A stretch of DNA of 64,000 bases from an uncultured Helicobacteraceae bacterium (GTDB taxonomy: Bacteria > Campylobacterota > Campylobacteria > Campylobacterales > Helicobacteraceae). Shown one piece after another: positions 60,407 to 64,000 of the stretch (position 1 is its first letter; the number at the start of each line of letters is the position of its first letter). Made by a program: the position numbers and the translations under genes. The notes below the pieces were generated by a model. The model was not told the DNA's origin and did not search any database. It saw only the letters and a program-made list of their open reading frames with translations. The DNA is taken from the NCBI GenBank assembly GCA_947176375.1, contig CAMWQM010000008.1, forward strand, positions 1-64,000, given 5' to 3'.

Positions 60407-62923
60407 CTAAAACCATAATTTATAGCTAAAAAATCCTCCATTATTTATACTTTTATCCCCAAAACTCCCCAAATAGCTTAAGTTAAACTCCATAGTCTCA
60501 TTTAGCACATAGCCAATTCCAAGCTTTGCATAGGCTAAATATGTATCACTAGCTACACTAAAAGCATAATTTTCTTGCGTCCCTAAACTATTTATCTTGT
60601 TATTATAAACACTAAGAGATGAAGTATTTTCTTTCATCACATTATATTTAGCACCAAATGCCGCATTCATAACTAAACCAAAATTAAATACTTTAACATA
60701 ACTAATTCCCAAATCCAAATAAAGCAAACTTGCAAATATATCATTATAATGCTCTATCTTTCCTATATCAATGGCACCACTTTTAAAGCCTATATAATTA
60801 CCTCCAAGTTCAATTCCAACGACCCCATAATCTATAAAATTAAAATCCTTTCCATAATATATGCTAGCAGAAAATCCTATATTGCTAGGCTTAATGCTAT
60901 TTACATTGCTAGTCATATCATTCATAAAATAAAAGAAATCTCCCCTAGCTTTAACATACATAGAATAAATAAAATCGATTTTATAGTGAATGCCAGCCAT
61001 TAAGCTCAATGTGTTTAAATCTATATAGGAGAGATTTTGCTTACCTTTCATATTTCCATAATTCAAGCCAAAATGAAGCCCCAAAGTGTGTATATTTGTT
61101 AGATTCGCATTAAATGCACTTACAAAGCCATAGTTTAGACCACTCATAGGAATATAAACTTCATCACTTAGTATGCTATGATTAACAAAAGGGCTAAATA
61201 TAAAATAAAAATCATCGTTAGATTCTGCTCTATTAGAATTTATATTAAAAGAAGCAGAATCTAATCTGCTATTTATCTTTGCATGTTTTGTGTTTGCATC
61301 AATAGAATTATTTATTCTACTTCTCCTTTGTCTTTCTTGCTGTCTATATTTCATCGTATCTGATAAATATGTGGATTCTAAAGTAGAATCTAGATAGATT
61401 GAAGTTAGAGGGCTAGATTTGGCAAAATTAGAATCTATCAAATTAGAATCTGGCTCTGTAAATTTTCTAGATTGAATGGATTTGGAGTGCAACACATGAG
61501 ACAATTCGTTAAATTCATTTAATTGTGTATTTTCAAAATCCATCATTGCAGAATCTGCATTACTATAATAAAATAGCTCATTTTCCCTAAAATTATGTGC
61601 TAGATAGTTGTTATATTGTGCTTGCAGTTTGCTTAAAATTTTTGTCTTTCTATTGATCTTTTTGCCAAATATTTCTGTATTACTAGAGGCTAATAGATGA
61701 TTTAAGTTCCTTATATTATCTATTGCTGTAATTCTAGGTGTGGTGCCTCTAGTATCTACTACTATTTTAAAATAATTCCCATCTCTTTGAAGCTGATAAA
61801 TTGAGCTTAATTTATAATCACTATCATAAGGGTCATTATATAACAAACCTAGATGATTAAACACATTATCAATATCACTATAATTTAATATCACTTTATT
61901 CAAAGCATAATTTTTATTTAACTCAACTTTTTCTTTAAGTTTTAGGAGAATTTTAGATTTGTTATCTAAATACAATTTAGCACCATCTGTTACTGCAATA
62001 TGAGTGTAGTCCATTCCATTTCCATTATTAGAGCTAGTTATGTCTCCATTAAAAGTAAAGTTATTAAAAGTATTTGAATCATTTTTAAATTGAAGATAGA
62101 AAGTTCCTAATGTTGCACTTAATTTATTCCCTTTAAATTGAACATTTGCAGAGGCATAATTATTAAATCTATTTATTACACAAGAAACACCTTTGCAATC
62201 TAGCGGTTGATAGTTAAAAGTATTTAAATTAGTTATTTCACCTATTGTTATTGTTCCTAAAACTTCACTTATATTAATTCCCATACCATCTGTATTAATT
62301 ATAGAACCTATATTAATATTATGATTATTATCAGTTTTTAACTTGAATTTTTCTTCATTTAAGTTAGCATTATTCATAATACTATATATCGTTAGGTTTC
62401 CATTATTTGCTTGTATTGTTAAATTATTAACTTGAGTAATGGTAATAGTGCCATAGCTGCCATATCCAGTTATGTTGCTAGTCATTGTGCAATCTCCATA
62501 ATTGCTGCCACTAGGGTTACTCTCACAACCAGCTCCATAGCCAACAACAAAATAAAATGATAAAACAAATGCTACTAAAATAAAATTATGTTTTTTATAA
62601 ACTTCTACTTTTAGGCAAGAAAATTGGGCTTGTTTTTTTATTTTAGATTCTAGCTTTATAGCAAAACAAAGCCCTAGATTAAAGTAAAGTTTCATCATTG
62701 CAAAACTTTGCATTTTTGCATTATGTAATAATTCTAAAATATATTTAGATTTATAAGATGCAAATTGAAAGATGTTATATTGTTTTAAGCAGAATATAAA
62801 AATTGAGAAGTTTAAATTGCTATTTTTTCTTTTCCAATTAGCGTATTGTTTAAACTTATCTTTATTGCTTCCCCCCCCCATTAAATCTCTAGCCTTTAGC
62901 ATATCTACATTTATCCCTATCAT
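60407..62923 (-). CDS. Autotransporter (VacA-like family) with a G9 tract
   Basis: Outer-membrane autotransporter of 838 residues, translated from ATG 62923 behind AAAAGGAAATATAA. The N-terminal extension (MIGINVDMLKARDLMGGGS) includes codons made by a nine-G run. A signal sequence follows at about 119-143 (KKHNFILVAFVLSFYFVVGYG). The passenger (about 150-400) is Asn-rich, beta-helix-like, with one cysteine pair (LDCKGVSCVI). A Ser/Arg-rich linker (QQERQRRSRINNSID) precedes a C-terminal barrel of about 270 residues ending in GGFFSYKLWF, with a terminal aromatic. The passenger is short for a VacA relative and shares no clear domain beyond the barrel and TRGTTPRITAID region. Confidence 0.8.
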   Translation of the reverse strand: MIGINVDMLKARDLMGGGSNKDKFKQYANWKRKNSNLNFSIFIFCLKQYNIFQFASYKSKYILELLHNAKMQSFAMMKLYFNLGLCFAIKLESKIKKQAQFSCLKVEVYKKHNFILVAFVLSFYFVVGYGAGCESNPSGSNYGDCTMTSNITGYGSYGTITITQVNNLTIQANNGNLTIYSIMNNANLNEEKFKLKTDNNHNINIGSIINTDGMGINISEVLGTITIGEITNLNTFNYQPLDCKGVSCVINRFNNYASANVQFKGNKLSATLGTFYLQFKNDSNTFNNFTFNGDITSSNNGNGMDYTHIAVTDGAKLYLDNKSKILLKLKEKVELNKNYALNKVILNYSDIDNVFNHLGLLYNDPYDSDYKLSSIYQLQRDGNYFKIVVDTRGTTPRITAIDNIRNLNHLLASSNTEIFGKKINRKTKILSKLQAQYNNYLAHNFRENELFYYSNADSAMMDFENTQLNEFNELSHVLHSKSIQSRKFTEPDSNLIDSNFAKSSPLTSIYLDSTLESTYLSDTMKYRQQERQRRSRINNSIDANTKHAKINSRLDSASFNINSNRAESNDDFYFIFSPFVNHSILSDEVYIPMSGLNYGFVSAFNANLTNIHTLGLHFGLNYGNMKGKQNLSYIDLNTLSLMAGIHYKIDFIYSMYVKARGDFFYFMNDMTSNVNSIKPSNIGFSASIYYGKDFNFIDYGVVGIELGGNYIGFKSGAIDIGKIEHYNDIFASLLYLDLGISYVKVFNFGLVMNAAFGAKYNVMKENTSSLSVYNNKINSLGTQENYAFSVASDTYLAYAKLGIGYVLNETMEFNLSYLGSFGDKSINNGGFFSYKLWF
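62871..62879 (-). repeat. G9 homopolymer in the autotransporter 5' end
   Basis: Nine C on the plus strand read as G9 in the coding strand, spanning the G of an ATG (codon 15) and the following Gly codons. At nine Gs the frame from the ribosome site runs into the signal sequence. Such tracts are known phase-variation switches in Helicobacter and Campylobacter. Confidence 0.85.
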
Positions 62924-63036
62924 TTATATTTCCTTTTTTTATTCCTAAATATTATGGTTTATTTTGGCAGCTTTAGCTTAAAAAACTATAAAATATTTAG
63001 CAATATACTTTTACTTTCTTTGATCCACAATAAAAA

Positions 63037-64000
63037 TTAGAATAAGAATCTCCCACCAATGCGTAAATCAAAGTAATTTGGCATTTTTAAATTATTTTTA
63101 ATATTTACTAGCTTTGTGCTTGTTTGCACAGAAATATCAAGAAAATGTAAAATATTCATACCAGCCGTAAATATCACGCCATAAGGATTTTTCCACATAT
63201 CGCCCATAATACCGAATCTAAAATCAAGCCAAGTAGCGTCAAATATCACACCACCACCAACCATTTGATTTTTCTTACCAATTTCTAAAGTATCATTTGG
63301 ATATAAATCAATATCAGCCAAAAATGTAAATCTCCATACCTCAAATCCTACTCCAGCTCTAAACTGCGGATTAAGCCTAAAGCTGCCATTCGAAGTTTTT
63401 ATTTTTGGTACATTTAAATTCTTTCCAACAACTCCCACAGAAAAACCCTCTATCGTATATAACATTCCTAAATCTACCCCAAAAGTGCTAGTTTGCTTCA
63501 TATTATCCACTAAATCAAAGTTAAAATTAAAATTATCAAAATTAAAAATTTGCGAAGCATTTAGCGATAATGCGTGAATATACTTCAAACTAACACCCAA
63601 ATGCAAATCTCCAGCAAATAGTGGAATAGTATGCCCATAACTAATAGGGACTTCGGCTAAAACCACGCTATTTGCTATTAGATTGTGTTGTGCGTCTGGT
63701 GATAGAATGGAATTATTTTTATATTGTTCCTCGGTGTATTGTTTGTCACCATTAGTATTGCCACCTAGGCTACCAAGATAACTAATAGTGATGGAATCTC
63801 CTTTTATTAAAGCTTCAAAAAATTTATCACCATTCTTCATAATAATATCTCTGCGATTCTTATCCAAACCTATATTAAAGTAACCATTTGCACTAGCCAA
63901 AAGCCCTATACCGATAGCACCTCTATCATCATTTCCGCCAATGTGAAAGACAAAGCCATTATTAGAACTAATTTTCATTCCATTTGAATTGATAGTATTG
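63037..64000 (-). CDS. TraF-like outer-membrane protein, N-terminus outside the window
   Basis: Open to the window end (321 codons seen), with residues N, T, I, N, S, N, G before the first internal Met, so the true start lies beyond. Beta-strand-rich with many Gly-aromatic turns, a VVGKNLNVPKIK segment and a C-terminus in YFDLRIGGRFLF, as in the TraF_2 (PF13729) family of barrel proteins related to conjugal-transfer TraF. In Campylobacterota these are chromosomal outer-membrane proteins without conjugation partners. It lies 113 bases upstream of the autotransporter on the same strand. Confidence 0.75.
   Translation of the reverse strand, partial: NTINSNGMKISSNNGFVFHIGGNDDRGAIGIGLLASANGYFNIGLDKNRRDIIMKNGDKFFEALIKGDSITISYLGSLGGNTNGDKQYTEEQYKNNSILSPDAQHNLIANSVVLAEVPISYGHTIPLFAGDLHLGVSLKYIHALSLNASQIFNFDNFNFNFDLVDNMKQTSTFGVDLGMLYTIEGFSVGVVGKNLNVPKIKTSNGSFRLNPQFRAGVGFEVWRFTFLADIDLYPNDTLEIGKKNQMVGGGVIFDATWLDFRFGIMGDMWKNPYGVIFTAGMNILHFLDISVQTSTKLVNIKNNLKMPNYFDLRIGGRFLF

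What the first reader, a model, noticed from the sequence alone, without database searches (positions are those of the whole stretch)
62871..62879. G9 tract makes the autotransporter a probable phase-variable surface protein
The only visible ribosome site drives translation from ATG 62923 through nine Gs before the signal sequence. Nine keeps the frame on; eight or ten would stop the protein early. Downstream Met codons have no ribosome site. In a low-GC genome a run of nine Gs by chance is very unlikely, and such tracts are established contingency switches in this group.
Basis: partly seen in the sequence, partly recalled or inferred. Interest (0 to 1): 0.6.

Follow-up and report, generated by a model that had tools for sequence, protein, structure and literature searches.

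The report
Poly-G switch in an autotransporter gene
A run of nine Gs near the start of an outer-surface protein gene of a Helicobacter-like bacterium almost certainly acts as a random on/off switch, one of about 75 such runs in this genome; the mechanism is well known, so this is a good but ordinary new example.

Summary
On the minus strand, AAGGAA (62935-62930) and ATG 62923 are followed by 15 codons and G9 (62871-62879). At G9 the frame runs 838 codons; at G8 or G10 it ends after 36 or 20. Downstream Met codons up to the signal sequence have no ribosome site, and the stretch between tract and first such Met is stop-free in this frame only (P about 0.008). The protein is a classical autotransporter: signal core (residues 113-128), β-rich passenger, 12-stranded C-terminal barrel (NalP/EstA fold, Z about 26; PF03797 in 10 of 14 relatives).

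The tract is not a lone oddity. This genome has 75 G-runs of 7 or more, mode exactly 9, and 59 of 9 or more against about 0.4 expected. Of those inside genes, 25 are in frame and 25 split the gene. Both paralogues in this genome carry an in-frame G9 near the 5' end. Across the genus, half of the family's intragenic tracts split the gene. So phase variation by slipped-strand mispairing is strongly supported by sequence, but no reads or second isolate were available to show the length changing. The kind is known (CapA/CapD of Campylobacter; Helicobacter poly-G genes): a new member of a known kind.

The parts
62871..62879 (-). G9 homopolymeric tract, codons 16-18 (Gly-Gly-Gly), proposed slipped-strand switch
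   Evidence: read directly; only run of 8 or more in the window
62930..62935 (-). ribosome-binding site AAGGAA
   Evidence: duplex energy -5.8 kcal/mol with 16S 3' tail, correct spacing
60407..62923 (-). autotransporter gene, 838 aa, ON at G9
   Evidence: open frame; frame lost at G7, G8, G10, G11
62862..62864 (-). TAA that ends the frame when the tract is one G longer (20 codons)
   Evidence: and sequence
62812..62814 (-). approximate position of the stop that ends the frame when the tract is one G shorter (36 codons)
   Evidence: coordinate by arithmetic
62588..62870 (-). unconserved leader (codons 19-112) between tract and signal core; 0 stops in frame against 11 and 12 in the other frames
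62540..62587 (-). hydrophobic signal-sequence core, residues 113-128
   Evidence: hydropathy maximum
61220..62539 (-). passenger and linker (residues 129-568; beta-rich in the model from about 150 to 390)
   Evidence: AlphaFold model, moderate confidence
60410..61219 (-). C-terminal translocator beta-barrel, residues 569-838
   Evidence: matches NalP, EstA, AIDA-I, EspP barrels; PF03797 E=6.6e-5 for this domain alone, 10 of 14 family members

Best explanation
The G9 tract is a translational contingency switch. During replication, slipped-strand mispairing adds or removes single Gs. At 9 (or 12) Gs the ribosome that starts at ATG 62923 (or Met8/Met15) reads through the tract into the leader, signal sequence, passenger and barrel, and the autotransporter is exported. 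At 8 or 10 Gs it stops after 36 or 20 codons and no surface protein is made. The assembled state is ON. The passenger probably contributes to adhesion or antigenic identity in a host. Shown from sequence: tract, start, frame dependence, protein class, recurrence in relatives. Inferred: that the length varies in cells, the slippage mechanism, expression and surface role.
For: Tract, ribosome site and frame effects. No usable downstream start; leader between tract and Met71 stop-free in this frame only, P about 0.008. Autotransporter barrel. Genome-wide 75 tracts with length mode 9 (7:6, 8:10, 9:48, 10:10, 11:1) and 25 in-frame against 25 split genes. Both paralogues in this genome have an in-frame G9 in the first 60 codons. 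In relatives of the same genus 3 further intragenic tracts are in frame and 6 split the gene, several with a strong ribosome site and start on one side and the passenger on the other. Six autotransporters from other genera of the family carry G10-G12 close to the signal sequence. Campylobacter jejuni capA switches through a G11 coding tract with a reported frequency of 0.02 (PMC4965091).
Against: No read data, second isolate or orthologue with another tract length could be examined; no orthologue was found in the 58 other genomes of the relatives search (best 45% identity is a paralogue in the same genome, 44% in a relative, C-terminal part only). Codon usage of the leader after the tract is weak (0.019 against 0.085 at the 5th percentile of real coding slices), so it is not typical coding sequence. 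An assembly can miscall a homopolymer length. All three family members in this genome are ON, which by itself does not show switching.
Confidence: 0.9

Rival explanations
1. Translation starts downstream of the tract (for example Met76/77), so the tract lies in an untranslated leader and at most modulates mRNA or expression level.
For: Leader is long (112 codons before the signal core), unconserved and has weak codon usage; starting at Met77 would give a compact 50-60 residue signal region.
Against: No ribosome site at Met71, 76 or 77 (0 to -0.6 kcal/mol) but a proper one at ATG 62923; the leader is stop-free only in the G9 frame (0 against 11 and 12 stops); paralogues and relatives show the same arrangement with start upstream of tract.
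Confidence: 0.07
2. The tract is a stable coding feature or a chance run without switching.
For: Encodes Gly-Gly-Gly with no obvious conflict; tract length variation not observed here.
Against: 59 runs of G9 or longer against about 0.4 expected, length mode at 9; GGG is 16% of Gly codons; half of gene-internal tracts are out of frame.
Confidence: 0.03
3. The gene has a tract but its fate is lineage-specific decay, like the capC genes of Campylobacter whose inactivation is lineage-bound and independent of tract length.
For: Lineage-specific autotransporter decay is reported in Campylobacter (PMC7168839).
Against: The 838-codon frame is intact, with a complete barrel and terminal aromatic residue.
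Confidence: 0.02

Closest known systems
CapA (Cj0628) and the capD autotransporter family of Campylobacter
   Same: Autotransporter gene with a poly-G tract in the coding sequence that sets the frame; CapA is phase variable (PMC4965091, PMC8355987, PMC7168839)
   Different: CapA's tract lies at +501 of the gene; here it lies at codon 16, before the signal sequence. Direct sequence homology with CapA was not tested.
capC autotransporters of Campylobacter
   Same: Autotransporters with a G tract near the 5' end, commonest length G9 in C. jejuni (PMC7168839)
Helicobacter canadensis poly-G phase-variable genes
   Same: Poly-G tracts at the 5' end of coding regions with length variation seen in reads (PMC2823697)
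   Different: 29 tract-associated coding regions there; 75 G-runs of 7 or more here, and the focal protein is an autotransporter, a word that does not occur in that paper
NalP (Neisseria) and EstA (Pseudomonas) autotransporter barrels
   Same: Barrel fold, Z 25.7 and 26.6 at rmsd 2.1-2.2
   Different: About 12% sequence identity; only the barrel was matched, the passenger was barely tested

Membership tests
classical (type Va) autotransporter | N-terminal Sec signal sequence | tested here: met
   Hydrophobic core FILVAFVLSFYFVVG at residues 114-128 preceded by a Lys-rich stretch; no dedicated signal predictor was run
classical (type Va) autotransporter | C-terminal 12-stranded translocator beta-barrel (PF03797) | tested here: met
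   Model aligns to NalP, EstA, AIDA-I, EspP barrels at Z 23-27; PF03797 in 10 of 14 family members; focal member E=6.6e-5 but 23.2 bits, below the curated cut-off of 26
classical (type Va) autotransporter | passenger exposed or released at the cell surface | not testable with these tools
   needs protein work
translational (slipped-strand) phase-variable gene | homopolymeric tract of 7 or more G inside the reading frame close to the start | tested here: met
   G9 at codons 16-18
translational (slipped-strand) phase-variable gene | one-unit changes give early stop | tested here: met
   36 codons at G8, 20 at G10
translational (slipped-strand) phase-variable gene | tract length differs among cells or isolates | not testable with these tools
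   no reads; no second isolate or orthologue among the relatives searched; tracts of the family's other members do differ (G8 to G15)

The most novel reading that the evidence does not exclude
Autotransporters across several genera of this family of Helicobacter relatives repeatedly carry a poly-G switch between start codon and passenger, often just before or inside the signal sequence, at non-homologous positions, so that the whole autotransporter repertoire of a cell is set combinatorially. Within one small genus this would be a surface repertoire governed almost wholly by independent one-base switches.
Probability: 0.5. Interest if true: 0.4.

Novelty: new member of a known kind. Interest (0 to 1): 0.3.

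Why it matters
It identifies a probable phase-variable surface protein, and a large set of poly-G tracts (75 G-runs of 7 or more), in a little-studied Helicobacter relative. It suggests that a poly-G run before the signal sequence is a recurrent layout for autotransporters in this family. Practically, any cultured isolate must be tract-typed before loss or gain of this protein is read as a mutation or a lineage trait.

Tried and rejected
Orthologue tract lengths: no orthologue among the relatives searched, and a genome-collection scan with the whole protein found nothing. Homologues of the leader: none beyond itself. Pfam and NCBIfam on the full protein: no hit; the C-terminal domain alone gave PF03797. 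Profile against PDB sequences: no hit. Rfam on the window: no RNA element. Sigma-70 scan: no convincing promoter just upstream, so promoter and possible co-transcription with the upstream outer-membrane gene are open. A G7 run at window 48845 lies within the first 15 codons of an intact frame starting MKIGVFDSGVGGLSV (glutamate racemase-like) and is probably plain coding sequence.

Full report
Observation. The run is exact: nine C on the + strand at 62871-62879, that is nine G in the sense of the minus-strand gene 60407-62923. It is the only run of eight or more in the window; shuffles that keep dinucleotide content gave a mean of 0.08 for G8. From the window's composition (30% GC), a first-order Markov estimate predicts 0.013 runs of G9 or more in the window and 0.36 in the 1.8 Mb genome. 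The genome has 59.

Reading frame. AAGGAA at 62935-62930 precedes ATG 62923 with good spacing (-5.8 kcal/mol with the 16S tail; median for first ATGs of long ORFs of the window -4.2). Met8 and Met15 also lie before the tract. The only in-frame starts between tract and signal core, Met71, Met76 and Met77, have no ribosome site. At G9 the frame gives 838 residues; at G7, G8, G10 and G11 it gives 19, 36, 20 and 37. The stretch from the tract to Met71 holds no stop in this frame, but 3 and 9 in the others; a simulated segment of like composition stays open with probability about 0.008, and the whole stretch to the signal core with 0.00014. That argues for translation through the tract. Against it, codon usage there is weak and the leader has no relatives, so I read it as poorly constrained spacer that is nevertheless translated.

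Protein. The full-length protein hits no Pfam or NCBIfam model, but its C-terminal 301 residues hit the autotransporter beta-domain (E=6.6e-5, below the curated cut-off), as do 10 of 14 family members (best 3.9e-15). An AlphaFold model on a shallow alignment (mean pLDDT 54; barrel mostly about 65-88) shows a beta-rich passenger and a barrel of about 12 strands at 569-838, which matches EstA, NalP, AIDA-I and EspP at Z 23-27 and rmsd 2.1-2.7. A hydrophobic core at 113-128 follows a basic stretch. This is a classical autotransporter.

The genome. 75 runs of G7 or more were fetched with flanks. Lengths are 7:6, 8:10, 9:48, 10:10, 11:1, a peak at 9 rather than the decay expected by chance; the window itself has 86 G4, 8 G5 and no G6. 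By a mechanical rule, 25 tracts are in frame within a gene, 25 lie between an upstream start and a downstream open frame in another phase, and 25 are intergenic, at a gene end or unclear. An even mixture of open and interrupted genes is the mark of contingency loci. Families among these genes include FkbM methyltransferases, glycosyltransferases, N6 DNA methylases and autotransporters, the usual targets in Campylobacter and Helicobacter (own knowledge).

Relatives. Two paralogues in this genome (contigs C36 and C9; 41-45% identity in the C-terminal part) each carry an in-frame G9 in the first 60 codons. Relatives in the same genus include Helicobacter sp. 16-1353 and metagenome genomes. Of their intragenic tracts in this family, three are in frame (G15, G9, G9) and six split the gene (G11, G13, G9, G8, G9, G10); in one, a ribosome site of -10.6 and a signal peptide run into the tract and the passenger leaves it in another frame. 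With the three in this genome, that is six and six. A profile search of 121 genomes of the family found more distant members, of which six carry G10-G12 within about 115 nt of the start of the open frame, close to the signal sequence, and five others carry no such tract there. Tract positions differ between paralogues, so the switches appear to have arisen repeatedly; this is inference, no tree was made.

Mechanism and limits. The simplest account is slipped-strand mispairing giving ON at 9 or 12 Gs and OFF otherwise; the assembly shows ON. In C. jejuni, switching frequencies of 0.004 (G8, cj1139) and 0.02 (G11, capA) are reported (PMC4965091), so a G9 tract should switch often. No read data, second isolate or orthologue was available, so length variation of this very tract is not shown; nor are expression, surface exposure and function.

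Compared with what is known. Phase-variable autotransporters with coding poly-G tracts are established (CapA, capD family), and H. canadensis has 29 tract-associated genes with variable length in reads. The present gene differs in the tract's place (codon 16, before the signal sequence, against +501 in capA), and the genome in its count of tracts. It is a new member of a known kind.

Noticed in passing
G000 contig C23 (L140, 1-18000): Nine G9/G10 tracts within 16 kb, most of them near the 3' end of long open frames rather than at the 5' end, resembling the C-terminal switching described in H. canadensis (PMC2823697).
   Followed up: partly
L099 position 1667 (relative G004): A G10 run immediately before an AGGG ribosome site and start codon of an autotransporter relative, with a second G10 that splits the barrel; the first may tune translation instead of setting frame.
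   Followed up: no
L192, L195, L196, L198, L199, L200: Autotransporters of other genera in the family also have G10-G12 runs next to the signal sequence, suggesting a recurrent layout.
   Followed up: partly
window 63037-64000 and L085 9037-12017: Two TraF_2/PorP-like outer-membrane protein genes directly upstream on the same strand, after selA-like, selB-like and moeA-like genes; the autotransporter may be the last gene of this run.
   Followed up: partly
genome-wide: 21 of the 75 G tracts fall in no recognisable gene; some may sit in promoters.
   Followed up: no
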